DNA from: Alphaproteobacteria bacterium
Lineage (GTDB): Bacteria; Pseudomonadota; Alphaproteobacteria; UBA8366; Aestuariispiraceae
DNA: 64,000 bases
Assembly (NCBI GenBank): GCA_024743195.1
Contig: JANSXE010000002.1
Span: 62,001 to 126,000 of the forward strand
Direction: 5' to 3'
Shown here: piece after piece, positions 7,050 through 19,976 of the stretch
Position numbering within the stretch: position 1 is the first letter of the stretch
Layout: every line of letters begins with the position of its first letter
Program-made: the position numbers and the translations under genes
Notes under the pieces: model-generated
The model's input: the letters and a program-made list of their open reading frames with translations, nothing else
Databases searched by the model: none
Told to the model about the DNA's origin: nothing

Positions 7050-7508
7050 TCAGGCGGCGCCGGGCCGGCGCTTCAGCATCGTCATGGAGCTGTAGGTGAG
7101 CACGGTCTCGCCGGCCCCATTCACCACCGTGAAGCCGAGGCGCAGAAGCCCCCGATCCGGCTTGCTCTTGGACGGGCGCGCTTCGAGAACCTCCACCTGG
7201 CTGGTCAGCGGGTCGTCGGGGAAGACCGGCTTCAACCAGCGGATCTCGTCCATGCCGGGGCCGGCGAGCCCGGTGCCCTCGAAATGGCCGAACTCCAGAT
7301 AGAGCTTGAAGGAGAAGGCGACGGTCTGGAATCCGCTCGCGATCACCCGGCCGAAGGGGCCGTGCGTCGCGGCGAAGGCCGGGTCGATATGGATCGGCTG
7401 CGGGTCGTAGTCCCGGGCGAAGGCGATGACGGTCGCTTCGTCCAGGGCGGCGCTGCGGGTCGTGAAGCGCTCCCCCACCGTGAAGTCGTCTATGTATCGG
7501 CCGGTCAC
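7050..7508 (-). CDS. MaoC family dehydratase
   Basis: A hot-dog-fold protein of 152 residues starting with GTG. It shows the MaoC pattern TVIAFARDYDPQPIHIDPAFA with the catalytic Asp/His pair, and GRVIASGFQTVAFSFKLYL. MaoC proteins hydrate or dehydrate (R)-enoyl-CoA thioesters. It is the fifth gene downstream of the flavodoxin gene in the minus-strand benzoate group, 31 bp after the MBL gene, so an acyl-CoA substrate fits, possibly in the lower pathway after ring cleavage. It is not part of the canonical box set. Confidence 0.85.
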   Translation of the reverse strand: MTGRYIDDFTVGERFTTRSAALDEATVIAFARDYDPQPIHIDPAFAATHGPFGRVIASGFQTVAFSFKLYLEFGHFEGTGLAGPGMDEIRWLKPVFPDDPLTSQVEVLEARPSKSKPDRGLLRLGFTVVNGAGETVLTYSSMTMLKRRPGAA

Positions 7509-7539
7509 GATTTTTTCCCAGAACGCCGAAATGAACCGC

Positions 7540-8595
7540 TCAGACCAGCCGCCAGCGCTGCACGCCGTCGGCGTCGAGCGCGGCCTCGGCGCGACCGGCG
7601 TCGGCCAGATGCTCCAGATGCGCCAGAACCTCGCCCAGCGCGAACATCATATGCATGTCGTCCAGCTTGCGCGGGAACATGGCCGGCAGCAGCGCGAAGC
7701 CGGTCATCGGCGTCGTGCGGCTCATCCCCTGCAGCAGGGCGTCGAGCCGCTCGACATGATGCGCGCGAAGCTGGTCGATGCGGGTCTGAACGCCGCGATA
7801 GGGCAGCTTGTGCGAAGGCAGCACCAGCGCCTCGCCGGGCACGGCGGCTTCGAGCTTGTCCAGGCTCTCGTAATACTCCGCCAAGGGACGGCCGCCGTCC
7901 TTGAACCAATAGACCGAGATGTTCGGCGTGATCTTCGGCAGCAGCTGGTCGCCGCAGATCAGCAGATCGAGCTCCCGGCACAGAAGGCAGGCGTGCTCGA
8001 CCGCATGGCCTTCCACCGTCAGCACCTCCCAGCGCCGGCCGCCGATCGTCAGCGTCTGGCCGTCGCGGATGCGGCGGTGCCGGTCCGGCGGGGTCACAAC
8101 GCGGCGCTGGTACTCGTTGCCGAAGGCGGCGAGGCGCTCGCGCAGCCCCGCCTCCATGCCGTGACGGCGGAAGAAGGAATCCTGCGCCGCGGCCGCGGTC
8201 TCATGGTCGATGCGCTGCAACAGCGCGCCGACGACCCATTCGCCCTCGGTCATCTCCACGGTGACGCCGAATTCCCGGGCGAGCCAGCCGGCCAGCCCGA
8301 AATGGTCCGGATGGTAATGGGTGCAGATCAGCCGGTGCGGGCGCCGGCCGGCCGCCGGGCCGTCGAACAGGCGTCGCCAGAGCGCTTGCGTCTCCTTGTG
8401 GCCGAAACCGCTGTCGACGATCGTCCAGGTCGGCGCCCCGGCCTCGTCCTCGTCTTCCATCAGCCAGAGATTGATGTGGTCGAGATCGAGCGGGATCGGC
8501 ATGCGCAGCCAATGCACGCCGTCGGCGACTTGGATCATTTCCGCCGGGCCGGGCGCAGCGTCATAGGGGTAGTCCAGGCTCTTGCGGTCGGTCAC
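7540..8595 (-). CDS. MBL-fold metallo-hydrolase
   Basis: A 351-residue metallo-beta-lactamase-fold hydrolase. The zinc motif is complete: CTHYHPDHFGLAGWL, with TVEGHAVEHACL and LLICGDQLLP supplying later metal ligands. A GTG start (8595) follows GGAAAG by about 10 nt. Proteins of this subclass are annotated as glyoxalase-II-like or thioesterase-like; the substrate is not readable. It lies 37 bp after the alpha/beta hydrolase and 31 bp before maoC in the benzoate group, so CoA-thioester hydrolysis (relief of trapped CoA) is a reasonable but unproven guess. Confidence 0.85.
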   Translation of the reverse strand: MTDRKSLDYPYDAAPGPAEMIQVADGVHWLRMPIPLDLDHINLWLMEDEDEAGAPTWTIVDSGFGHKETQALWRRLFDGPAAGRRPHRLICTHYHPDHFGLAGWLAREFGVTVEMTEGEWVVGALLQRIDHETAAAAQDSFFRRHGMEAGLRERLAAFGNEYQRRVVTPPDRHRRIRDGQTLTIGGRRWEVLTVEGHAVEHACLLCRELDLLICGDQLLPKITPNISVYWFKDGGRPLAEYYESLDKLEAAVPGEALVLPSHKLPYRGVQTRIDQLRAHHVERLDALLQGMSRTTPMTGFALLPAMFPRKLDDMHMMFALGEVLAHLEHLADAGRAEAALDADGVQRWRLV

Positions 8596-8632
8596 GCAAT
8601 GCTGCTTTCCGTAGGACTCGCGACCGCGCGCC

Positions 8633-9445
8633 TCATCGCAGGGCCGCGATGAAGCGCGCGCTCGCCTCGAGAACCGCCTCGCGACGGTCGCGGTGCGGGG
8701 AATGCTTGCAGCGTTCCAGCACCAGACGCTCGACCGGGCCGGCGACGCCGGCTTGGATCGCGTCGATCTGGGCCAGCGTGCCGTACTCGTCGTCCGCCCC
8801 CTGGATCGCCAGCACGGGCGCCGCGATCCCGGGCAGACACCGCTCGATATTCCAGGTCCGGAAGTCCGGATGCAACCAGATGTCGTTCCAGCCGCGAAAA
8901 CTGCGGTCGGCGTCGTCGTGATACTTGGCCAGCCGCCGGGCCAGATCCGTCGTCTCGAAGACCTGCTTCGCCTCCTCGATCGAGGCGATCGTCAGGTCCT
9001 CGACGAAGACGTGCGGGGCCTCGACGATCAGCCCGGCGACCGGGCGTTGCGCCGCGCCGGCGTGGATCAGCGCGATCGAGGCGCCGTCGGAATGGCCGAA
9101 CAGCACCGGCCGCTCGATCTCCAGCGCATCCAGCAGCGCCGGCAGGCTCTCCAGCGCCTCGCGATGCATGTAGTCGGTCCCGAAGGGCGCCTGCAACGGC
9201 TCGGACCGGCCGTAGCCGTAGCGGGAATAGACCAGCACCTCCGCGCCCGCCGCCTCGGCCAGCGCCGCCGGGAAATCCTTCCACATCGCGACGGAGCCCA
9301 GCCCTTCGTGCAGCAGGACCACCGGCGGCGCGCCCGCCGCCGGCGCGGCCGGGCGATGACGCACGCACTCCAGCCGCCGGCCGGCGGCGGTCTGGAAGAA
9401 GCGGTCGGGCTCGCGCACGCCGTCCGGGGCCATAATCGCGCTCAC
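8633..9445 (-). CDS. Alpha/beta hydrolase of the box cluster
   Basis: An alpha/beta-hydrolase-fold protein of about 270 residues: VVLLHEGLGSVAMWKDFP (oxyanion-hole region), nucleophile elbow FGHSDGASIALIHA (Ser in GHSDG), an acid in LAIQGADDEYG, and the late His in CKHSPHRDRRE. A GTG start at 9445 overlaps the ligase stop (GTGA); an ATG 12 bp further in (9433) is the alternative. Hydrolases of this type recur next to benzoate-CoA ligase in bacterial box clusters; they may hydrolyse stalled thioesters or lactones, but I know of no firm function. Confidence 0.88.
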   Translation of the reverse strand: MSAIMAPDGVREPDRFFQTAAGRRLECVRHRPAAPAAGAPPVVLLHEGLGSVAMWKDFPAALAEAAGAEVLVYSRYGYGRSEPLQAPFGTDYMHREALESLPALLDALEIERPVLFGHSDGASIALIHAGAAQRPVAGLIVEAPHVFVEDLTIASIEEAKQVFETTDLARRLAKYHDDADRSFRGWNDIWLHPDFRTWNIERCLPGIAAPVLAIQGADDEYGTLAQIDAIQAGVAGPVERLVLERCKHSPHRDRREAVLEASARFIAALR

Positions 9446-11007
9446 GCCCCGCCCGTCGCGCGCAGCTTGAAGCGCTGGATCTTGCCGGTCGCGGTCTTCG
9501 GCAGCTCGTCCGCGAACTCGACCCAGCGCGGGTACTTGTAGCCGGCGAGCGTCTCCTTCACGAAGCCCTTGATCTCGTCGGCCAGCGCGTCGCTCGCCGC
9601 GATCTCCGTGCGCAGCACGATGAAGGCCTTGGGCTTGATCAGATCGTCCTTGTCCGGATGGCCGACCACGGCGCATTCGAGCACCGCCGCATGCTGCAGG
9701 ATGGCGCTCTCCACCTCGACCGGGGAGACGTAGATGCCGCCGACCTTCATCATGTCGTCGGCGCGCCCGGCGTGGGTGTAGTAGCCGTCGGCGTCGCGCA
9801 CGTACTTGTCGCCAGTGCGCGTCCAGGGGCCGCAGAAGGTCTCGCGGCTCTTGTCGCGCTGGCCCCAATACAGGATCGCGCTGGTCGGGCCGTTGACCTC
9901 CAGCATGCCGAGCGCGTCCGCCTCCTCGATCACCCGGCCGTCGTCGTCCACGAGGCGCAGGTCGTAGCCCGGAACCGGCTTGCCCGAGGTCCCGGGGCGG
10001 ATGTCGTCGGGCCGGTTGGACAGGAAGATGTGCAGCATTTCCGTCGAGCCGAGCCCGTCCAGGATCTCGACGCCCGTCGTCTCCTTGAAGCGGCGGAACA
10101 GCTCGGCCGGCAGCGCTTCGCCGGCCGACGTCGCCGCGCGCATCTTGTGTGCGCCGGGCGCGGGCAGCTCCCCGCTCGCCAGCAGCATGCCATAGAGGGT
10201 GGGCACGCCGTAGAAGATCGTGACATCCTGCGTCTTCAGAACCTCCGCGACCGCCTTCGGCTCCGGCGGCCCTTCCAGCAGGACGGTCGTTGCCCCGACC
10301 GCCATCGGAAAGGTCAGCCCGTTGCCCAGGCCATAGGCGAAGAACAGCTTCGCGGCCGAGAACACCACGTCGTCCTCGCGGATCCCGAGGACGGGGATAG
10401 CGTAGAGCTCGGCCGTCTTCGCGAGATGCGAGTGCAGGTGCACCGCCCCCTTCGGCTTGCCGGTCGTGCCGGAGGTGTAGAGCCAGAAGCAGATGTCGTC
10501 CGCCCGGGTCGGCGCGGTCTCGAAGCGCTCCGGCTGGTCGGCCAGCGCGTCGGAAAGCAGCGCGTAGCCCCGCCCGTCGGCTCCGGCGACGATCACCGTC
10601 TCCAGATAGGGATGCTCCCCGATATGGTCGAGGAACTGCGGCAGCAGCGCCTCGGAAACCACCAGCGCCCGCGCCCGGCTGTCCGCGAGCATGAAGGCGT
10701 AGTCCTTCGGCGTCAGGCGCGTGTTGACCGGGATCGGGACGATCCCCGCCTTGATCGCGCCCAGGAAGACCGCCGGAAAGTCGATCGTGTCGGTCATGCA
10801 CATCAGGACGCGCTCGTCGATCCGCACGCCGCGGGCGGTCAGCAGGTTCGCGACCCGGTTGGCGCGGGCGTCGAGCTCGGCGTAGCTGTGCGGGCCGTCC
10901 TTGTCGATGAAGGCGGGCTTGTCGCCGCGGCCGGCGGCGAGATTGCGGCCGATCAGATCCTCGGCCGCGTTGTAGCGCGCGCCGGCGAGCGGGGTTTTGG
11001 GCGCCAT
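9442..11007 (-). CDS. bclA: Benzoate-CoA ligase
   Basis: ANL-superfamily acyl-CoA synthetase of 521 residues that activates benzoate with ATP and CoA to benzoyl-CoA, the entry step of the box pathway. The P-loop YTSGTTGKPKG spans 177-187; later come GSTEMLHIFLSN, YYTHAGRADDMMKVGG (hinge) and the catalytic Lys region PKTATGKIQRFKL. These hinge and GSTEMLH segments resemble benzoate-CoA ligases rather than acetyl- or 4-coumaroyl-CoA ligases. AGGAGG lies about 11 nt before the ATG. It is co-directional with the DUF4863 gene (72 bp upstream) and overlaps the hydrolase gene by 4 bp. A substituted benzoate as the true substrate cannot be excluded. Confidence 0.92.
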   Translation of the reverse strand: MAPKTPLAGARYNAAEDLIGRNLAAGRGDKPAFIDKDGPHSYAELDARANRVANLLTARGVRIDERVLMCMTDTIDFPAVFLGAIKAGIVPIPVNTRLTPKDYAFMLADSRARALVVSEALLPQFLDHIGEHPYLETVIVAGADGRGYALLSDALADQPERFETAPTRADDICFWLYTSGTTGKPKGAVHLHSHLAKTAELYAIPVLGIREDDVVFSAAKLFFAYGLGNGLTFPMAVGATTVLLEGPPEPKAVAEVLKTQDVTIFYGVPTLYGMLLASGELPAPGAHKMRAATSAGEALPAELFRRFKETTGVEILDGLGSTEMLHIFLSNRPDDIRPGTSGKPVPGYDLRLVDDDGRVIEEADALGMLEVNGPTSAILYWGQRDKSRETFCGPWTRTGDKYVRDADGYYTHAGRADDMMKVGGIYVSPVEVESAILQHAAVLECAVVGHPDKDDLIKPKAFIVLRTEIAASDALADEIKGFVKETLAGYKYPRWVEFADELPKTATGKIQRFKLRATGGA

Positions 11008-11079
11008 GGGGCGGGTCCTCCTGTTGGATGCGCCGCCTCTTGGCTCGGGCGGCTGCGTCGAACGACGTCGGCTGCCGGC

Positions 11080-11547
11080 TCAGCGCTTGGTGAAGGCGAT
11101 CTCGCCGTCCGGCAGGAGATAGAGCACGATCGCCTCGCCGCCGCTGATCGTCGGATGATGCGCGGTGCCGGGGGCGTAGACCAGCCAGCCCTCGCCGCGC
11201 CCGTCGAATTCGGCGTCCGGGTCGATCGGCAGAATCAGATCGATCTCGCCCTTCGGATGGGCGTGATGCGGGCCGGCGAGGTCCTTGTAGCGCACGACGT
11301 CGACGGAGAAGCCGGCCGTCTCCTCCGACGGCTTGATCGGCCGGCCGAACCGGATGCCGCCATGCTCCCGCTCGCCCAGCCAGCCTTCCTCCATGCCGGC
11401 GCGGCAGGCGGCGGCGAGACCTTGAAAGGTCTCGCTCTCCGGCGGAAAGGTCTCGTTCAGGAAGCGGTCCAGGGCCTCGTCCAGCGGCTTGCCCGCAACG
11501 CGCTCCGTGACCGCGACCACATGGCGTTTCAGCGTCTCCACCGTCAT
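11080..11547 (-). CDS. DUF4863 family protein (PnbB-like), box-cluster companion
   Basis: A 155-residue cupin-like protein. The second half has the metal-binding pattern of a small beta barrel: HHAHPKGEIDLILPI, GEGWLVYAPGTAHHPTI and EAIVLYLLPDGEIAF. The family includes 4-hydroxylaminobenzoate lyase (PnbB), and DUF4863 members are regular neighbours of benzoate-CoA ligase in box clusters, where their role is unclear. GGAGGAG stands about 9 nt before the ATG. It is the second gene of the minus-strand group, 115 bp after flavodoxin. A lyase on nitrobenzoate intermediates or a box-pathway accessory role are both possible. Confidence 0.8.
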   Translation of the reverse strand: MTVETLKRHVVAVTERVAGKPLDEALDRFLNETFPPESETFQGLAAACRAGMEEGWLGEREHGGIRFGRPIKPSEETAGFSVDVVRYKDLAGPHHAHPKGEIDLILPIDPDAEFDGRGEGWLVYAPGTAHHPTISGGEAIVLYLLPDGEIAFTKR

Positions 11548-11662
11548 CGCGTCGTCTCCTCCCGCATCCGGTCGATCTTCATCCGTGAAGCCCCTTCGCG
11601 TCGATGGGCTTTTTCACAGTAGGGGTTTTGGCGCGCGCCCTTGCGCGCGGCTTGCGCCGCCG

Positions 11663-12127
11663 TCAGGCGGCTTCGGTCAGCGCCTCGTACCAGCCGGCGG
11701 CCCAGTCCGCGGCTTCGTCCTCCGGCAGCGAGCCGGAGGCGGCGTTGTGGTTCATCACCGCGCCGACGCGACGGGCGCCCAATTCCTGCAAGGTCTCGTC
11801 GAACTGCCGCCCGCCGAAACAGAAGGTCTGCGCATAGGTCATGTCGCCCAGCGCGAAGACCCCGTAGCGCACGGCCGCGAGATCCGGCTTCTTCTCCTTC
11901 AAGGATTCGAGGAAGGCGTGCGCATTGTCCGGCACATCGCCCTGCCCGTAGGTCGAGGTGCAGATGATGAAGGCTCCGCCGTCCGCGAAGACGCCGGCGT
12001 CGAGATCGTCCATCAGTTCGATCTCCGCCGCCATGCCCTTGTCGGTCAGGACCTCCGCGATCTCGTCCGCCACAAGCTCGGCCGTGCCCGTCATGGTGCC
12101 GACCAAAATCTTAACGCTGTCCGCCAT
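11663..12127 (-). CDS. Flavodoxin (MioC-like)
   Basis: A 154-residue single-domain FMN protein. The phosphate loop is T11-M-T-G-T-A16, the first FMN-contact loop is TSTYGQGD (57-64), and the third is FALGDMTYAQTFCFGG. It is close in form to MioC-like flavodoxins. The ATG at 12127 is chosen because the domain starts there (MADSVKILVGT); the frame continues upstream through the boxR operator region and is not coding there. It is the first gene of the minus-strand benzoate group and divergent from boxR, so BoxR control is likely. It is the best nearby candidate for an electron carrier to BoxB; this is inference. Confidence 0.88.
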   Translation of the reverse strand: MADSVKILVGTMTGTAELVADEIAEVLTDKGMAAEIELMDDLDAGVFADGGAFIICTSTYGQGDVPDNAHAFLESLKEKKPDLAAVRYGVFALGDMTYAQTFCFGGRQFDETLQELGARRVGAVMNHNAASGSLPEDEAADWAAGWYEALTEAA

Positions 12128-12206
12128 CCAACCCCGTCTCCGCCTGGTGCCGCGCCCGGCCGCGCGGACGTCCGTCCGCACACCGCGCGCCTCGTCTTTC
12201 GGAGGC

Positions 12207-12222
12207 CGGCAATATAGTGCAT
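12207..12222. promoter_or_regulatory. Predicted BoxR operator upstream of boxR and flavodoxin
   Basis: CGGCAATATAGTGCAT matches the perfect palindrome before boxC (13286-13301) at 13 of 16 positions, with one intact TATAGTGCAT half. It lies in the 207-bp spacer between the divergent flavodoxin and boxR genes. A further CATACTG repeat (12220-12226 and 12244-12250) follows. BzdR/BoxR proteins are reported to recognise TGCA half-sites; assignment here is by position and similarity. Confidence 0.6.
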
Positions 12223-12334
12223 ACTGTTTTTCAAGAAAAGCATCATACTGCAGATGCGACGGCGCGGCCGCCGCATCGCGCCCCAAAGGACACGGGCGCG
12301 GGCAAGGGAAAGGACAGGGGCGGAGGCGGTCGGG

Positions 12335-13240
12335 GTGAGCGAACGACGCGGCAAGGACGAGGAGGATCCGGAGCTCGCCGCCTATCTGGCGCAGCTCGGC
12401 GAGCGCGTGCGTGAGGCCCGCGCCAAGCGCGGCATGGCGCGCCGCATCCTCGCCCGCGACTCCGGCGTCTCGGAACGCTATCTGGCCCAGCTCGAAAGCG
12501 GCGCCGGCAACCCCTCGATCGCCGTGTTGCGCCAGATCGCGCGGGCGGTCGACTATCCGCTGGCCGACCTGGTCGCCGGCGCGCGCGCCGACAGCGGCGA
12601 GATCGCCGCGATCCTGGATCTGCTGGGCGGGGTGGAGGCGAGCCGCCTACCCGCCGTCCGCGCCGCGGTCGAACGCCAGCTCGCGGGCGTCGGCGGCCCC
12701 GACAAGCGCGCGCGGATCGCGCTGATCGGGCTGCGCGGCGCGGGCAAGTCGACGCTCGGGCGGCTGCTGGCGGAGCGCCTCGACCTGCCTTTCGTCGAGT
12801 TGAACCGCATCGTGGAGCGCGATTACGGCGGCAGCATCGGGGAGATCCTGGCGCTGAACGGCCAGCCGGCGCTGCGCCGCTACGAGCGGCGCGCGCTGGA
12901 AAGCGTGCTGACCGGCCATGAGCGCCTCGTGCTCTCCACCGGCGGCGGCATCGTCTCCGAATCCGCGACCTTCGGCCATCTGCTGGAGCATTGCTGGACG
13001 GTCTGGATCAAGGCCAGCCCCGAAGAGCATATGAGCCGCGTCATCGAACAGGGCGACCTGCGCCCCATGGCCCGCAACGACGAGGCGATGGACGATCTGA
13101 AGGCGATCCTGCGCGCCCGCGAGCCCAGCTACCGCCGCGCCGACGCGGTCGTCGACACCGCCGGCCAAACGGTGGAGGAGAGCCTGGCCGCCCTGGTCGA
13201 GGCCGTCAGGCCCTTTCTCGGTGAGGCGGACGCGGCCTGA
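12335..13240 (+). CDS. boxR: BoxR: benzoyl-CoA-responsive regulator (HTH plus shikimate-kinase-like domain)
   Basis: Transcription factor of the BzdR/BoxR family, 301 residues. The N-terminal Xre-type HTH spans about 20-78 (ARRILARDSGVSERYLAQLE); the C-terminal half is a shikimate-kinase-like domain with Walker A GLRGAGKST (132-140), LSTGGGIVSE and the RPMARNDEAMDDL segment. In this family the kinase-like domain senses benzoyl-CoA instead of phosphorylating shikimate. GTG at 12335 is chosen because GGAGG lies 8 nt upstream; longer in-frame starts run into the operator region. It is divergent from the flavodoxin gene and 210 bp before boxC. Confidence 0.93.
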   Translation: MSERRGKDEEDPELAAYLAQLGERVREARAKRGMARRILARDSGVSERYLAQLESGAGNPSIAVLRQIARAVDYPLADLVAGARADSGEIAAILDLLGGVEASRLPAVRAAVERQLAGVGGPDKRARIALIGLRGAGKSTLGRLLAERLDLPFVELNRIVERDYGGSIGEILALNGQPALRRYERRALESVLTGHERLVLSTGGGIVSESATFGHLLEHCWTVWIKASPEEHMSRVIEQGDLRPMARNDEAMDDLKAILRAREPSYRRADAVVDTAGQTVEESLAALVEAVRPFLGEADAA

Positions 13241-13285
13241 GCGTCCCGACAACACGCATCATAATTCCTTGCACGACCCCGAACT

Positions 13286-13301
13286 ATGCACTATAGTGCA
13301 T
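13286..13301. promoter_or_regulatory. Predicted BoxR operator upstream of boxC
   Basis: ATGCACTATAGTGCAT is a perfect 16-bp palindrome containing TGCA-N6-TGCA. It lies about 150 bp before the boxC start in the boxR-boxC spacer. The sequence fits the TGCA half-sites described for BzdR/BoxR, and a 13/16 copy precedes boxR. Confidence 0.72.
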
Positions 13302-13450
13302 GTTATCGACGTGACGCGCGCCCGGAAGCAGGGCGAGACGCGGCGCCCCGCCGCCTGCTCGGGATTCGAGGCCGGCCGGCCGCGCCGTCTTCTGCTGGAC
13401 GCGCAAGCGGCCGACCCGCCGCAAGAGCGGGTCGGAGAAAGGGATAGGGA

Positions 13451-15157
13451 ATGACCGCTGAAGCCGCCGAAACGCAGACCGCCAAGGCAGAGGGGCCGCA
13501 GACCCCGAACCTCGTCACCTATGACCGCGATCCGTCGGAGTACCGCCATTGGTCCTACGCGGTGGACGGCGAGATTGCGACGCTGACGCTGAAAGTCGAC
13601 GAGGACGGCGGCATCCGCCCCGGCTACACGCTGAAGCTCAATTCCTACGACCTCGGCGTCGACATCGAGCTGAACGACGCGCTGAACCGCATCCGGTTCG
13701 AGCATCCCTCGGTCAAGGCGGCGGTGCTGACTTCGGGCCTGGACCGCATGTTCTGCGCCGGGGCGAACATCTACATGCTGGGTCAGTCGACCCATGGCTG
13801 GAAGGTGAATTTCTGCAAGTTCACGAACGAGACCCGCAACGGCATGGAGGACAGCTCCAAACATTCGGGTCTGAAGTTCCTCGCCGCGTGCAACGGCACG
13901 ACCGCGGGCGGCGGCTACGAACTGGCGCTGGCCTGCGACGAGATCGTGCTGATCGACGACCGCTCCAGCGCGGTCAGCCTGCCGGAGGTGCCGCTCCTGG
14001 GCGTGCTGCCGGGCACCGGCGGCCTCACGCGCGTCACCGACAAGCGCAAGGTGCGCCGCGATCTGGCCGACGTCTTCTGCACCTCCGAGGAGGGCGTGCG
14101 CGGCCGCAAGGCGAAGGAATGGCGTCTGGTCGACGATCTGGCGCCCAAGCAGGGCTTCGAGGAGAAGGTTCGGGCCCGCGCCAAGGCGCTGGCCGCGACC
14201 AGCATCCGCCCGGACGCCGCCGAGGGCGTCGCGCTGACGCGCGTCGCGCGCACCATCCGCGACGACGGCTATAGCTATCCCTTCGTCGACGTGACGCTGG
14301 ACGAGGCCGCGCGGGTCGTGACGCTCACCGTCAAGGGGCCGGCCGACGCGCCGCCCGCCGACGCGGATGCGATCCGCGCCCGGGGCATGGGCTTCTGGCC
14401 CTTGCAGATGGCGCGCGAGCTGGAGGACGCGATCCTCATGCTGCGCACCAATCACGAGGGCTTCGGCGTCTGGCATCTGAAGACCGAAGGCGACGCGGAA
14501 AAGGTGCTGGCCTACGACGCCGCCCTGACGGCGCACAAGGACAGCGACTGGTTCGTGCGCGAGACGGTCGGCTTGCTGCGGCGCACGCTGCAACGGCTCG
14601 ACGTCACCTCGCGCTCGCTGTTCGCGCTGATCGACGAGGGCTCCTGCTTCGCGGGGACGCTGTTCGAGATCGCGCTGGCGGCCGACCGCAGCTACATGCT
14701 GGACCTGCCGGACGACCCCGACGCGGCGCCGGCGGTTGCGCTGAGCGCCATGAATTTCGGCCCGCTTCAGGGCGTCGACGAGCGCACGCGGCTCGCCTCG
14801 CGCTTCTATGACGACGCGGACAGGCTGGCCGATCTCGAAGCCCGCACGGGCGAGACGATGAAGGCCGAGGCGGCGGAGGAAGCCGGCCTCGTCACCTTCA
14901 TTCCCGACGATCTGGATTGGCAGGACGAGATACGGATCGCGACGGAGGAACGCGCGAGCCTGTCGCCCGACGCCTTGACCGGCATGGAGGCGAACCTTCG
15001 CTTCCCGACCAAGGAGACCATGCTGACGCGGGTCTTCGGCCGGCTGAGCGCCTGGCAGAACTGGATCTTCATTCGACCCAACGCGGTGGGGGAAAAAGGC
15101 GCGTTGAAACTGTTCGGCTCCGGCTCGAAAGCCGACTTCGACTGGAAAAGGGTGTAA
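13451..15157 (+). CDS. boxC: 2,3-epoxybenzoyl-CoA dihydrolase BoxC
   Basis: Ring-opening enzyme of the aerobic benzoyl-CoA pathway; it hydrolyses 2,3-epoxybenzoyl-CoA to 3,4-dehydroadipyl-CoA semialdehyde and formate. The 568-residue product is the long, two-lobed enoyl-CoA-hydratase-related form: the first lobe has TSGLDRMFCAGANIYML and ACNGTTAGGGYELALACDE (oxyanion hole and active-site loop), the second LFALIDEGSCFAGTLFEIAL. Length and motifs fit BoxC rather than ordinary crotonases (~260 residues). It follows the BoxR operator and precedes boxB by 5 bp, so boxCB is one operon. Confidence 0.95.
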   Translation: MTAEAAETQTAKAEGPQTPNLVTYDRDPSEYRHWSYAVDGEIATLTLKVDEDGGIRPGYTLKLNSYDLGVDIELNDALNRIRFEHPSVKAAVLTSGLDRMFCAGANIYMLGQSTHGWKVNFCKFTNETRNGMEDSSKHSGLKFLAACNGTTAGGGYELALACDEIVLIDDRSSAVSLPEVPLLGVLPGTGGLTRVTDKRKVRRDLADVFCTSEEGVRGRKAKEWRLVDDLAPKQGFEEKVRARAKALAATSIRPDAAEGVALTRVARTIRDDGYSYPFVDVTLDEAARVVTLTVKGPADAPPADADAIRARGMGFWPLQMARELEDAILMLRTNHEGFGVWHLKTEGDAEKVLAYDAALTAHKDSDWFVRETVGLLRRTLQRLDVTSRSLFALIDEGSCFAGTLFEIALAADRSYMLDLPDDPDAAPAVALSAMNFGPLQGVDERTRLASRFYDDADRLADLEARTGETMKAEAAEEAGLVTFIPDDLDWQDEIRIATEERASLSPDALTGMEANLRFPTKETMLTRVFGRLSAWQNWIFIRPNAVGEKGALKLFGSGSKADFDWKRV

Positions 15158-15162
15158 GCGCT

Positions 15163-16587
<1,425 letters not shown>

Positions 16588-16609
16588 GGCGGCTGAACGC
16601 GTCGCATCA

Positions 16610-16654
16610 AAGGCCCGGCCGGCGCTTCGAGAGGAGACGGCCGGGCCTTCCTTT
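16610..16654 (+). terminator. Rho-independent terminator after boxB
   Basis: Perfect 12-bp inverted repeat, AAGGCCCGGCCG (16610-16621) and CGGCCGGGCCTT (16638-16649), with a 16-nt loop, followed by CCTTT. It lies about 22 bp after the boxB stop. Confidence 0.85.
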
Positions 16655-16710
16655 AGCGGGAGAGGCTTGGCGCCCCTGGCGGCCAAGGCCTCGCCCGGAG
16701 GAAGACGCGG

Positions 16711-16756
16711 CGTCATCCTTCGAGACGCCGCCTGCCGGCGGCTCCTCAGGATGAGG
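16711..16756. repeat. Dispersed palindromic repeat, copy 1
   Basis: A GC-rich imperfect palindrome that starts CATCCTTCGAGACGC and ends CTCCTCAGGATGAGG, with a GCCGCCTGCCGGCGGC core. Elements with exactly these ends (TCCTTCGAGACG ... CTCAGGATGAGG) are abundant intergenic repeats in several alphaproteobacterial genomes. An inverted second copy lies 71 bp downstream. Together with the terminator the two fill the 335-bp gap between boxB and the reductase gene; no coding sequence is seen there. Confidence 0.75.
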
Positions 16757-16827
16757 GCTTGCGGTCTCAATCTGTGCCGGAGGGCCTCGCCTTGCGGCGG
16801 TCTTGCGGTTCCAGTCCGTGGGCGCAA

Positions 16828-16868
16828 GCCTCATCCTGAGGAGGGCGCATCAGCGCCCGTCTCGAAGG
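16828..16868. repeat. Dispersed palindromic repeat, copy 2 (inverted)
   Basis: Begins GCCTCATCCTGAGGAG, has a GGGCGC-ATCA-GCGCCC stem-loop core and ends GTCTCGAAGG, that is, the same element as copy 1 in the opposite orientation. The two also share CTTGCG next to the GATGAGG end. It could form a cruciform or long RNA hairpin with copy 1. Confidence 0.75.
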
Positions 16869-16922
16869 GCGGGACCGCTTACCGATGGGCGCGTTCGGCG
16901 TCCATGAGACGGAGAAAGGCGC

Positions 16923-18218
16923 ATGAGCATGCTCAAAGTCGCGATCGTGGGCAGCGGACCGGCCGGCTGCTATGTCGCCGAGCGCTTGGGCCGCAAGGCG
17001 AAGGGCGCGGTGGAGATCGACGTCTTCGATCGGCTCCCCACCCCCTTCGGTCTGGTGCGCGCCGGCGTCGCGCCGGACCATCAGACCACCAAGGCGGCCG
17101 CGCGCGTCATGGCCAAGGCGATGGAGAAGCCGGAGGTGCGCTTCTTCGGCAATGTCGAGATCGGCCGCGACCTCACGCTCGACGCTCTCCGCGCCGCCTA
17201 TGACGCGGTGGTGCTGGCCGTCGGCGCGCCGGAGGATCGGGGGCTCGACATCCCCGGCGCCGACCTGCCGGGCGTCGTCGGCTCCGGCGCCTTCACCCGC
17301 TGGATCAACGACCATCCGGACGCGGCGGACCGCGGCGGCGATCTGGCGCAGGCGCGGCGCGCGATCGTGATCGGCGCCGGCAATGTGGCGATCGACGCGG
17401 CCCGGCTGCTCGCCAAGACGGCGGCGGAGGTGGAGGATTCGGACCTCTCCCCGGACGTCGCGTCCGCGCTGCAGGGGGCGCCGCTCGAAGAGATCGCGAT
17501 CGTCGGCCGGCGCGGCGCGGCGCATCTCAAATTCACCCCGACGGAGCTCTTGGAGCTCGGCGACCTCGCCGAGGCGTCGCTGCGCATCGATCCGGCGGAC
17601 GCCGAGCAGGATCCGGAGGCGACGGACAACCCACAGGGCTACGCCGCGCTCAAGGAGCTCGCCGGCCGGCCGGTCGAGGCGAAGCGCCTGACGCTGTCGC
17701 TGCGCTTCAATCTCCAGCCGGAGGAATGCATCGCCGGCGCGGACGGGCGCGTGGCGTCGGTGCGCTTCCGCCGCACCCGTTCGGAGGGCGACCGCACGGT
17801 CGCGACGAATGAGACGGTCGAGCTTCCGGCCGACCTGGTGATCGCCTGCATCGGCTACCGGACGCGGACGCCGGACGGCGTGGCGGCGGACGGCGGCCGC
17901 CTGGCGAACGAGGAGGGGCGGATCGCGCCCGGCCTCTACGTCGTCGGCTGGGCCAAGCGCGGGCCCAGCGGCACGATCGGCGTCAACCGCGCGGAAGCGC
18001 ACGCCGTGGCCGACCGGTTGCTCGACGAGACGCCCGCCGACGACAGGCCGGGCCGCGCGGCGGTCGCCGAGCGCCTGGAAACGGCCGGCGCGGAAAGCGT
18101 GGACTGGTCGGGCTGGAGCCGCATCGACGCGGCCGAGACCGCCCGCGCCGAGCCGGGCCGCGTACGCCGCAAGTTCGCCGACCGGGGCGAGATGATCGCC
18201 GCGGCCCGCGGCGCGTAG
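16923..18218 (+). CDS. NADPH-ferredoxin reductase, adrenodoxin-reductase type (FprA-like)
   Basis: A 431-residue FAD/NADPH flavoprotein. FAD site VGSGPAGCYVAERL is at the N-terminus, followed by DRLPTPFGLVRAGVAPDHQ, the hallmark of adrenodoxin-reductase-type enzymes; the NADP site is VIGAGNVAIDAARLL, and the C-terminal FAD loop is VVGWAKRGPSGTIGVNR. These enzymes pass electrons from NADPH to ferredoxins or flavodoxins that serve P450s and other oxygenases. It lies between boxB and the P450 gene and could serve either; it is not BoxA, since no N-terminal ferredoxin domain is present. It is separated from boxB by a terminator and repeats. Confidence 0.92.
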   Translation: MSMLKVAIVGSGPAGCYVAERLGRKAKGAVEIDVFDRLPTPFGLVRAGVAPDHQTTKAAARVMAKAMEKPEVRFFGNVEIGRDLTLDALRAAYDAVVLAVGAPEDRGLDIPGADLPGVVGSGAFTRWINDHPDAADRGGDLAQARRAIVIGAGNVAIDAARLLAKTAAEVEDSDLSPDVASALQGAPLEEIAIVGRRGAAHLKFTPTELLELGDLAEASLRIDPADAEQDPEATDNPQGYAALKELAGRPVEAKRLTLSLRFNLQPEECIAGADGRVASVRFRRTRSEGDRTVATNETVELPADLVIACIGYRTRTPDGVAADGGRLANEEGRIAPGLYVVGWAKRGPSGTIGVNRAEAHAVADRLLDETPADDRPGRAAVAERLETAGAESVDWSGWSRIDAAETARAEPGRVRRKFADRGEMIAAARGA

Positions 18219-18472: not shown

Positions 18473-18677
18473 GGTCCCCGGCTCCCCCCGTGCGAGCAAG
18501 ACGGCCACTTTATCGCCCTGACCGGATCGGTCAATCGCTCAGCATTCACGCGCCTGTCACAGACCGCATGAACGGGCGAGACCTTGGTTGTTTCAAACAA
18601 AACGATTTGACAGCAACGCACTGTCTCCGCACAGTTTTCACCAACAACAGGAAAAGCAGTCGGGGAGAGAACGAGCC

Positions 18678-19976
18678 ATGACGGAGGCGCCGATCGAGAC
18701 CGCGCCGCACGATCTCGCGGCGCTCGAAGACTGGGGCGACGCGCAGGCCGCAGCCTTCGTCGCCGGCTTCGACATCCGCGTCGCCGGCCGCGATCCGGCC
18801 TTTCTGGAGGATCCGTACCCGACCTATCACCTGCTGCGGCGACTGGATCCGGTGCATCGGGCGCCGGACGGCTCCTATTTCCTGACCCGCTGGGCCGACC
18901 TGATGGCGGTCTATCGCGACACGGCGCGCTTCAGCTCCGACAAGAAGGCGGAGTTCGGGCCGAAGTTCGGGACCGACACGCCGCTCTTCCGACATCACAC
19001 CGGGTCGCTGGTCTTCAACGACCCGCCGCTGCACACCCGCGTGCGCAAGCTGATCGCGAACAGCTTCACGCCGCGCGCCCTGAAGCAGCTGGAGGCCTCC
19101 TTCATCGCCATGGTCGACCGGATGCTCGACCGCGCCGTCGCGGACGGCGGCATGGACGTGATCGCGGACTACGCCTCCGGACTGCCGGTCGAAATCATCG
19201 GCGACATGCTGGCGATCCCGGTAGCGGAGCGCGGCCCCTTGCGCGACTGGTCGCTCGCCATCCTCGGCGCGCTCGAACCGGTCCTGACGCCCGAGGCGGA
19301 GGCGTGGGGCAACCGCTCCGTCGCAGAGTTTTCGGACTATCTGGACCGGCATATCGCGCGCTGGCGCGCGGCGCCCCGCGAGGGTCAGGGCGAGGGGGAA
19401 GGCGAGGTGCTGAACAAGCTGGTGTTCGGCGAGGTCGGGGGCGAGCGTCTGAGCCAGGAGGAGTTGATCCAGAACTGCATCTTCCTCCTGAACGCCGGGC
19501 ACGAGACCACCACCAACCTGATCGGCAACGGGATCGCCGCGCTGATCGACCATCCCGACGAAGAGGCGCGGCTGCGCGCCGAACCCGATCTGCTGGAAAG
19601 CGCGGTCGAGGAGTTCCTGCGCTTCGAGAGCTCGAACCAGCTCGGCAACCGCATGGCGGTCGAGGACGCGGAAGTCGGCGGCGTTCTTCTGCCGGCCGGC
19701 GCGCCGGTGACCTTGTGCATCGGCGCGGCCAACCGGGACCCGGCGCAATTCCCCGATCCGGACCGGCTCGACCTGGCGCGCAGCCCGAATCGGCATCTCG
19801 CCTTCGGCGGCGGCGCCCATATCTGCGCCGGCCTGTCGCTCGCGCGGATGGAGGGGCGCATCGCCATCGGGCGGCTGCTCGACCGCGTGCCGCGCTTCCG
19901 CCGGTCCGCAGAGCCGGTGCGCGGCGGCCGCGCGCGCTTCCGCGGCTATCTCAGCCACCCCATCGAGTTCGTCTGA
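18678..19976 (+). CDS. Cytochrome P450
   Basis: Soluble bacterial P450 of 432 residues. The heme-ligand loop FGGGAHICAG places the axial cysteine at 383; the I-helix oxygen-activation motif is AGHETTT (273-279) and the K-helix ExxR is E312-R315. GGGGAGAG precedes the ATG at 18678; an in-frame ATG at 18588 has no such site. Substrate is unknown. The FprA-type reductase 460 bp upstream is a plausible first redox partner, and the 7Fe ferredoxin at 57.3 kb is the only recognised ferredoxin in the window, though nothing links it specifically. Confidence 0.93.
   Translation: MTEAPIETAPHDLAALEDWGDAQAAAFVAGFDIRVAGRDPAFLEDPYPTYHLLRRLDPVHRAPDGSYFLTRWADLMAVYRDTARFSSDKKAEFGPKFGTDTPLFRHHTGSLVFNDPPLHTRVRKLIANSFTPRALKQLEASFIAMVDRMLDRAVADGGMDVIADYASGLPVEIIGDMLAIPVAERGPLRDWSLAILGALEPVLTPEAEAWGNRSVAEFSDYLDRHIARWRAAPREGQGEGEGEVLNKLVFGEVGGERLSQEELIQNCIFLLNAGHETTTNLIGNGIAALIDHPDEEARLRAEPDLLESAVEEFLRFESSNQLGNRMAVEDAEVGGVLLPAGAPVTLCIGAANRDPAQFPDPDRLDLARSPNRHLAFGGGAHICAGLSLARMEGRIAIGRLLDRVPRFRRSAEPVRGGRARFRGYLSHPIEFV

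What the first reader, a model, noticed from the sequence alone, without database searches (positions are those of the whole stretch)
7050..18218. Box pathway without boxA or boxD; flavodoxin and FprA-type reductase as candidate electron supply
boxB, boxC, boxR and bclA are all present, but neither a BoxA-type ferredoxin-FAD reductase nor a BoxD-type semialdehyde dehydrogenase is found in the window. Instead the first gene of the divergent operon is a flavodoxin and the first gene after boxB is an adrenodoxin-type NADPH reductase. FprA-type enzymes can reduce flavodoxin or ferredoxin, so an NADPH-FprA-flavodoxin-BoxB chain is possible. boxA and boxD could simply be elsewhere.
Basis: partly seen in the sequence, partly recalled or inferred. 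Interest (0 to 1): 0.6.

Follow-up and report, generated by a model that had tools for sequence, protein, structure and literature searches.

The report
Flavodoxin-served benzoyl-CoA epoxidase gene cluster
This bacterium's oxygen-dependent benzoate pathway lacks the usual reductase for its ring-attacking oxygenase and instead carries a dedicated flavodoxin and its likely NADPH reductase, an arrangement found in many bacteria that suggests a second, untested way of powering the enzyme.

Summary
boxR, boxC, boxB, bclA, a flavodoxin (FLD) and an adrenodoxin-reductase-like FprA lie where stated. No BoxA reaches the TIGR03224 cut-off anywhere in the 98.3%-complete genome. No aldehyde dehydrogenase lies in the window; several lie elsewhere.

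It is not a quirk of one genome. Of 80 boxB genomes examined in the class, 66 lack BoxA. In 30, an FLD of this type stands divergently beside boxR, and none of those 30 has BoxA (14 of the other 50 do). A search starting from FLD alone kept 80 loci: 78 hold boxR, 58 boxB, 3 boxA. Those three have two boxB genes, with boxA directly behind the classic-type copy.

The position behind boxB is filled by BoxA, by a distinct FprA clade, or twice by a one-piece reductase with a [2Fe-2S] motif. Best explanation: NADPH → FprA → FLD → BoxB, under BoxR control. Electron transfer itself is inferred.

Against it: 36 of 80 boxB genomes have neither BoxA nor this FLD, so BoxB may also use general carriers. 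I found no paper describing this in the held library.

The parts
7050..7508 (-). MaoC-like gene, last gene of the divergent operon
   Evidence: PF01575 61.3 bits; follows the same neighbours in L187, L191, L193, L206 and L212
7540..8595 (-). metallo-beta-lactamase-fold hydrolase
   Evidence: PF00753 and PF21221; relatives in 13 of 80 flavodoxin loci
8633..9439 (-). alpha/beta hydrolase (start approximate)
   Evidence: PF00561 58.7 bits; relatives in 33 of 80 flavodoxin loci
9442..11007 (-). bclA, benzoate-CoA ligase
   Evidence: TIGR02262 748.9 bits
11080..11547 (-). PF16155 (PnbB, 4-hydroxylaminobenzoate lyase family) gene
   Evidence: 173.9 bits; relatives in 15 of 80 flavodoxin loci
11663..12127 (-). 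box-linked flavodoxin (FMN carrier), first gene of the divergent operon; proposed direct electron donor to BoxB
   Evidence: PF00258 104.1 bits; nearest solved relatives 2m6r (flavodoxin), 4oxx cindoxin, 2hna MioC; 78 of 80 relatives found from the flavodoxin alone have boxR on the same stretch
12208..12221 (.). operator-like site, 7 of 8 bases of TGCA-N6-TGCA, in the shared flavodoxin-boxR control region
   Evidence: such sites in 60 of 105 control regions against a resampled mean of 10.4; that this is the BoxR operator is recalled, not read
12239..12252 (.). second operator-like site, 7 of 8 bases
12254..13240 (+). boxR, XRE/shikimate-kinase-like regulator (true start may lie further in)
   Evidence: NF006015 391 bits; PF01202 and PF01381
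13451..15157 (+). [quoted passage not shown]
   Evidence: TIGR03222 927.7 bits
15163..16587 (+). boxB, diiron benzoyl-CoA epoxidase, in the flavodoxin-associated half of the BoxB tree
   Evidence: TIGR03225 794.7 bits; aligned with 3per residues 2-472, the six recalled iron ligands all kept; tree; start
16923..18218 (+). adrenodoxin-reductase/FprA-type reductase in the position that boxA holds elsewhere
   Evidence: 1cjc 3.7e-72, 1lqt 3.9e-66; one clade with 20 other FprA rows from directly behind boxB

Best explanation
The cluster encodes an aerobic benzoyl-CoA (Box) pathway in which a dedicated flavodoxin replaces BoxA. NADPH reduces the FAD of the FprA-type reductase; this passes single electrons to the FMN of the flavodoxin; the flavodoxin docks on BoxB and reduces its diiron centre, which epoxidises benzoyl-CoA; BoxC then opens the ring. 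BoxR, a benzoyl-CoA-dependent repressor of the box genes in Azoarcus sp. CIB (PMC4424350, passages), probably controls both divergent operons from the shared region. Shown by sequence: gene content, absence of BoxA, recurrent pairing, and trees of BoxB and FprA that follow the partner. Inferred: every electron-transfer step, cofactor and the regulation. The semialdehyde step (BoxD) is probably done by an aldehyde dehydrogenase encoded elsewhere.
For: No BoxA in the own genome. In the class sample, 30 of 33 genomes with a flavodoxin of this type (130 bits or more, a limit set after seeing the scores) have it divergently beside boxR, and 0 of these 30 have BoxA, against 14 of the other 50 (Fisher p 0.0007, grouping chosen after seeing the maps). 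Test from the flavodoxin alone: 257 relatives found, best 80 kept; 78 hold boxR, 67 boxC, 58 boxB, 56 bclA, 3 boxA. Genome-wide BoxA in 4 of the 50 flavodoxin genomes tested (of 80 loci in hand); in all four BoxA lies directly behind a BoxB of the classic half of the tree, and so it does in G064; in three of the four a flavodoxin-half BoxB follows BoxA. The BoxB tree splits in two: in the class sample the flavodoxin occurs in 19 of 23 genomes of one half and 14 of 57 of the other (p 2.5e-6, genomes counted, not events). Directly behind boxB stand BoxA (17 rows) or an FprA (22 rows); 21 FprA rows from there (19 different sequences) form one side of a 100* branch against 27 FprA from elsewhere in genomes and 7 neighbours of the ordinary type. 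Among solved structures the second-best relative is cindoxin, the dedicated donor of P450cin (review PMC9687028, passages).
Against: 36 of 80 class genomes with boxB have neither BoxA nor this flavodoxin (9 of the 36 have a weaker flavodoxin match), so BoxB can perhaps be fed by general carriers and the flavodoxin might be dispensable. Flavodoxin and BoxA are not significantly anti-associated when the boxR link is ignored (3 genomes hold both; p 0.14), and BoxA against tree half gives p 0.057. Four of 23 genomes in the flavodoxin half have no such flavodoxin (all family f57), and one of them (G351) has FprA behind boxB without it. 14 genomes of the classic half also have the flavodoxin. FprA was found in 18 of 80 flavodoxin loci, three of them of the ordinary type, so elsewhere the reductase would have to come from another locus. 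Slot-FprA against flavodoxin in the class sample is 5 of 6 against 28 of 74, p 0.077. Seven BoxB columns separate the two halves, but in the 13 classic-half rows with flavodoxin six of these columns keep the classic letter in 12 or 13 of 13. No biochemistry.
Confidence: 0.72

Rival explanations
1. BoxB takes electrons from general housekeeping ferredoxin or flavodoxin systems, and the box-linked flavodoxin has another benzoate-induced job, such as protection against oxidative stress.
For: 36 of 80 boxB genomes have neither BoxA nor the flavodoxin. Overexpressed flavodoxins protected Paraburkholderia xenovorans against paraquat (PMC6716667, abstract and passages).
Against: The pairing with boxR is nearly absolute (78 of 80), BoxA in the four BoxA-bearing of 50 flavodoxin genomes follows a separate classic-half BoxB, and a distinct FprA clade occupies the BoxA position in part of the range.
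Confidence: 0.17
2. The flavodoxin and FprA serve the cytochrome P450 encoded next to FprA (18588-19976), as cindoxin serves P450cin.
For: P450 PF00067 104.5 bits next after FprA on the same strand; cindoxin is the second-best solved relative of the flavodoxin.
Against: No relative of this P450 (150 bits or more) on any of the 80 flavodoxin stretches or on any box stretch of the class other than the window, not even in the nearest relative found, Marivibrio halodurans (L187), which keeps FprA, flavodoxin and the box genes. Stretches reach at most 10 kb to a side and many are shorter.
Confidence: 0.06
3. BoxA is present but missed through an assembly gap or divergence.
For: The genome is a draft of 31 contigs, 98.3% complete.
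Against: The gene directly behind boxB is read without a gap and is FprA; BoxA is also missing from 66 of 80 boxB genomes, including single-contig ones such as G379, G203 and G300, and from 46 of 50 flavodoxin genomes.
Confidence: 0.03

Closest known systems
BoxAB benzoyl-CoA 2,3-epoxidase (Azoarcus/Aromatoleum evansii type)
   Same: Same BoxB, BoxC, BclA, BoxR; BoxB aligns with 3per at 3.2e-202. BoxA is described as a reductase with two [4Fe-4S] clusters, specific for NADPH and FAD (PMC4498308, passages).
   Different: No BoxA; a flavodoxin and an FprA-type reductase instead.
P450cin system (cindoxin reductase, cindoxin, P450cin)
   Same: NADPH to FAD reductase to flavodoxin-like FMN protein to oxygenase (PMC9687028, passages).
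   Different: [quoted passage not shown] coli flavodoxin reductase; no call shows it to be of the adrenodoxin-reductase type.
Incomplete (IC_FM) box clusters, among them the P. xenovorans LB400 chromosome without BoxA; Ferrovibrio terrae K5 is listed only as incomplete
   Same: BoxA missing in LB400's chromosomal cluster (PMC10803450, passages).
   Different: That paper reads the missing BoxA as suggesting an impediment and, in the passages seen, names no replacement.
PaaABCE phenylacetyl-CoA epoxidase
   Same: Related epoxidase of a CoA thioester; BoxB is called a structural homolog of PaaA (PMC4498308, passages).
   Different: Uses PaaE, an FAD/[2Fe-2S] reductase; in two class genomes (G194, G287) a one-piece reductase with a [2Fe-2S] motif stands behind boxB.

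Membership tests
Box pathway (aerobic benzoyl-CoA epoxidation) | BoxB, BoxC and benzoate-CoA ligase over curated cut-offs | tested here: met
   TIGR03225, TIGR03222, TIGR02262 all above cut-off
Box pathway (aerobic benzoyl-CoA epoxidation) | BoxR-type regulator | tested here: met
   NF006015 391 bits, cut-off 204
BoxAB two-component epoxidase | BoxA reductase in the genome | tested here: not met
   no match above 20.5 bits, cut-off 459.2
Box pathway (aerobic benzoyl-CoA epoxidation) | BoxD semialdehyde dehydrogenase | tested here: inconclusive
   none in the window; 11 aldehyde dehydrogenase genes elsewhere, 10 scanned against NCBIfam, none compared with a BoxD reference
Flavodoxin (PF00258), MioC/cindoxin kind | family model and conserved FMN-loop stretch | tested here: met
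   104.1 bits; T13-G14-T15-A16 and T59-Y60-G61-G63 invariant or nearly so in 29 sequences; that these bind FMN is from general knowledge of the fold
Flavodoxin | FMN bound, redox active | not testable with these tools
   needs purified protein
Adrenodoxin reductase / FprA | full-length match including both dinucleotide-binding stretches | tested here: met
   1cjc and 1lqt over residues 5 to 425 or 426, with the VGSGPAG, IGAGNVA and GRRG stretches aligned
Flavodoxin-served BoxB (proposed) | electron transfer from flavodoxin to BoxB | not testable with these tools
   needs an assay

The most novel reading that the evidence does not exclude
There are two lines of benzoyl-CoA epoxidase: the classic one, part of which is reduced by BoxA, and a widespread second one reduced directly by a dedicated flavodoxin. 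The second would be a ferritin-like diiron oxygenase whose immediate physiological donor is a free FMN protein, with the FprA clade as its NADPH entry in part of the range and some operons running both lines side by side.
Probability: 0.6. Interest if true: 0.75.

Novelty: new variant of a known kind. Interest (0 to 1): 0.64.

Why it matters
In one survey (PMC10803450, passages) box clusters without BoxA were classed as incomplete; these data suggest that many are complete but differently powered. In the class sample genomes without BoxA outnumber those with it, 66 to 14. If true, it adds a route by which a diiron oxygenase is reduced, changes how benzoate degradation is annotated from genomes and metagenomes (boxA should not be required), and makes operons with both kinds of BoxB natural experiments on partner choice. 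It also leaves a clear open question: what feeds BoxB in the 36 of 80 genomes with neither partner.

Tried and rejected
Missed boxA: rejected by genome-wide TIGR03224 in the own genome, 80 class genomes and 50 flavodoxin genomes. Matches of 75-94 bits in five class genomes (G066, G200, G280, G358, G361) and two flavodoxin genomes (G416, G417) cover only the C-terminal half of the model and were not counted as BoxA. G231 (415.9 bits, under the cut-off) was counted as BoxA because the match runs to the contig end.

P450 as client of the flavodoxin: rejected as a general explanation. FprA near boxB in family f66 (G065, G185, G279, G357) and in L229, L235, L241: on the tree it is of the ordinary genomic type, so it was not counted as dedicated. 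The 27 genomic FprA were the seven best-scoring loci outside box clusters plus 20 that I picked from the list.

Ferredoxin motif scan in the 36 genomes without either partner: only G194 and G287 gave a convincing [2Fe-2S] reductase behind boxB; the other hits looked like chance in shadow frames, by eye. The scan reaches at most about 9 kb to a side. The donor in the remaining 34 is unexplained.

BoxB columns that separate the two halves: 7 found; one (residue 59 of the window's BoxB, counted from its Met) tracks BoxA loosely: Pro in 12 of 12 BoxA rows, 1 of 13 classic-half flavodoxin rows and 8 of 32 classic-half rows with neither. I draw no docking model from this.

BoxD: of 11 aldehyde dehydrogenase genes 10 were scanned against NCBIfam (the long frame at C15:491247-493265 was not). 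Over a cut-off came only MMSDH, PaaN, ProA and an SSADH subfamily model; no BoxD reference was at hand. Four proteins, both and two had been translated on the wrong strand through my script and gave nothing; one search found the right frames and one search repeated the scan. The BoxA references had the same fault; they were replaced, where one of the twelve (L054) still seems to be in a wrong frame. BoxA counts in class genomes rest, not on these.

Limits of the counts: two class genomes with only boxB fragments (G312, G313) were dropped to keep within 80 handles. For one search, 50 of the 80 flavodoxin loci were sent. The named set was capped at the best 80 of 257. The class set and the named set share genomes (for example G105 with L193), and a few genomes appear twice in one set, so their counts are not independent. 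The BoxB trees are FastTree trees drawn with a midpoint root; the FprA trees are quick IQ-TREE runs with SH-aLRT only. The operator background is resampled from dinucleotides, not an exact shuffle, and the 105 regions include related sequences.

Literature was searched only in the held open library: benzoyl-CoA with boxB and flavodoxin, boxA/boxB/boxC with benzoyl-CoA and reductase, benzoyl-CoA epoxidase or flavodoxin, 5 of 2,395 listed, box pathway with benzoyl-CoA, Alphaproteobacteria and boxB, FprA with flavodoxin, BoxA/BoxB with epoxidase, electron and benzoate, cindoxin, BoxR with BzdR, benzoyl-CoA with flavodoxin and BoxR, no paper, flavodoxin with benzoate degradation and box pathway. 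Papers were seen as passages only, never whole. Two DOIs looked up for BoxB work are not held.
Full report
The window lies at C29:62001-126000 of a 4.17 Mb genome in 31 contigs, 98.31% complete. The finding is real and in place. Family models and solved-structure searches name the genes: BclA, a PF16155 protein and the flavodoxin on the minus strand; BoxR, BoxC, BoxB and an FprA-type reductase on the plus strand. In the alignment of BoxB with 3per the six iron ligands (Glu120, Glu150, His153, Asp211, Glu240, His243 in 3per numbering; ligand identities recalled, alignment) are all kept. BoxB starts at ATG 15163.

No BoxA was found in the genome: the best TIGR03224 match is 20.5 bits against a cut-off of 459.2. 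No aldehyde dehydrogenase lies in the window, but there are 13 match pieces of PF00171 elsewhere, 11 genes by my reading. One is a PaaN (861 bits, cut-off 579) in a phenylacetate cluster with a PaaY just under its cut-off, a 3-oxoadipyl-CoA thiolase and PaaX. That cluster could supply the later steps, but this is inference.

How common is this? In 385 genomes drawn from the class, 82 have boxB. I examined 80 of them; two with fragments only were dropped. Nineteen have a TIGR03224 match at 1e-20, 13 over the cut-off; with one cut by a contig end I count 14 with BoxA and 66 without. A flavodoxin like the window's was found in 43 of 80 at 1e-8. In 33 the match is 130 bits or more, in the other 10 weaker. 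Eight weaker or second copies, fetched as controls, show no box gene on their 8-10 kb stretches. In 30 of the 33 the flavodoxin stands divergently beside boxR, including six genomes in which the pair lies apart from boxB or on another contig (G007, G044, G093, G107, G307, G379). The other three (G064, G197, G290) are exactly the ones that also have BoxA; the stretch of G064 is only 3.9 kb. So 0 of 30 genomes with the pair have BoxA, against 14 of 50 without it (p 0.0007; the grouping was chosen after seeing the maps). Ignoring the boxR link, flavodoxin against BoxA is not significant (p 0.14).

As a test not started from boxB, a flavodoxin alignment was searched through the named genome collection: 257 relatives, best 80 kept. 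Of the 80 loci 78 hold boxR, 67 boxC, 58 boxB, 56 bclA, 18 an FprA and 3 boxA; many stretches are cut by contig ends. Titles name Alphaproteobacteria (Marivibrio, Hwanghaeella, Sneathiella, Pacificispira and MAGs), Betaproteobacteria MAGs and Acidobacteriota MAGs. In both sets together, 109 of 122 flavodoxin hits have a boxR on their stretch, and all 109 are divergent from it; eight of the 13 others are the control paralogues, the rest L173, L174, L175, L217 and L263. In 50 of the named genomes BoxA was sought genome-wide: four have it over the cut-off. In all four BoxA directly follows a BoxB of 59-62% identity to the window's, and each of these falls in the classic half of the BoxB tree. In three the order is boxR-boxC-boxB-boxA-boxB, the last boxB being of the flavodoxin half; in the fourth (G400) BoxA and its BoxB lie on a different contig from the flavodoxin cluster. 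G064 of the class set shows the same order, with a classic-half BoxB fragment before BoxA and a flavodoxin-half BoxB after it.

The BoxB tree of 142 rows (FastTree, midpoint root) has two halves. All 12 rows from loci or genomes with BoxA alone are in one half. In the class sample, which was not chosen by flavodoxin, the flavodoxin is in 19 of 23 genomes of the other half and 14 of 57 of the classic half (p 2.5e-6); BoxA is in 1 of 23 and 13 of 57 (p 0.057). These are counts of genomes, not of independent events. The long row L166 was left out. The classic half is thus not a BoxA half: 32 of its 57 class genomes have neither partner.

What stands directly behind boxB? BoxA in 17 rows, FprA in 22 (21 with flavodoxin; one, L235, is of the ordinary type), and in G194 and G287 a one-piece reductase with a plant-type [2Fe-2S] motif; no NCBIfam model matched those two at 1e-60. 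In a tree of 55 FprA rows (52 different) the 21 from behind boxB form one side of a 100* branch, against 27 from elsewhere in genomes and 7 from family f66 and its kin, where an ordinary FprA lies near. The slot-FprA rows come from Alphaproteobacteria and Acidobacteriota by title or class.

Control region: sites matching TGCA-N6-TGCA in at least 7 of 8 bases occur in 60 of 105 flavodoxin-boxR regions against a resampled mean of 10.4 and maximum of 19; exact matches in 15 against 0.7, maximum 5. The window has two of the 7-of-8 kind. That this is the BzdR/BoxR operator is recalled; the paper I could read says that BoxR is a benzoyl-CoA-dependent repressor of the box genes in Azoarcus sp. CIB (PMC4424350, passages) and does not hold the string TGCA.

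Mechanism. The flavodoxin belongs with a short flavodoxin (2m6r), cindoxin and MioC and then with the FMN domains of P450 reductases, and keeps the loop residues expected to hold FMN. FprA aligns over its length with adrenodoxin reductase and Mtb FprA. P450cin is a precedent for NADPH to reductase to dedicated FMN protein to oxygenase (PMC9687028, passages). Only minor amounts of BoxA are needed by BoxB, suggesting a transient interaction (PMC4498308, passages), which makes replacement by another mobile donor plausible. The chain NADPH-FprA-flavodoxin-BoxB is therefore the best reading; no step of it has been measured.

Limits. In 36 of 80 class genomes neither partner is present (9 of these have a weaker flavodoxin), so BoxB may accept general carriers. 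Four genomes in the flavodoxin half of the tree (family f57) lack the flavodoxin, one of them with FprA in place. Most flavodoxin loci show no FprA on the stretch (62 of 80). Slot-FprA against flavodoxin gives only p 0.077. In the held library I found no paper on a flavodoxin in the Box pathway; subscription papers are mostly not held, so this is no proof that none exists.

Noticed in passing
L166 (G184 C18) and G064:C324:1248-2639: Divergent second BoxB copies (L166 about 51% identical to the window's, beside a BclA-like ligase; the G064 copy seen only as a 552-bit match) that may act on another aryl-CoA.
   Followed up: no
L120 and L122 (G287, G194), directly behind boxB: A one-piece reductase with a [2Fe-2S] motif stands in the BoxA position, with neither BoxA nor flavodoxin in the genome: a possible third way of feeding BoxB.
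   Followed up: partly
L087-L166, 36 of 80 class genomes: boxB genomes with neither BoxA nor the box-type flavodoxin; in several families the operon is boxC-boxB-ligase with a branched-chain-type ABC transporter.
   Followed up: partly
window 18588-19976: Cytochrome P450 next after FprA, with no relative at 150 bits on any other stretch examined.
   Followed up: yes
L205, L206, L260: Records titled Phormidium willei, Mesoflavibacter (MAG) and Klebsiella pneumoniae (MAG) carry this kind of box cluster; perhaps mislabelled or mixed assemblies.
   Followed up: no
L173 (G197) and L174 (G290): In two BoxA-bearing genomes the flavodoxin persists beside an alpha/beta hydrolase, without boxR on the stretch, perhaps a remnant.
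   Followed up: no
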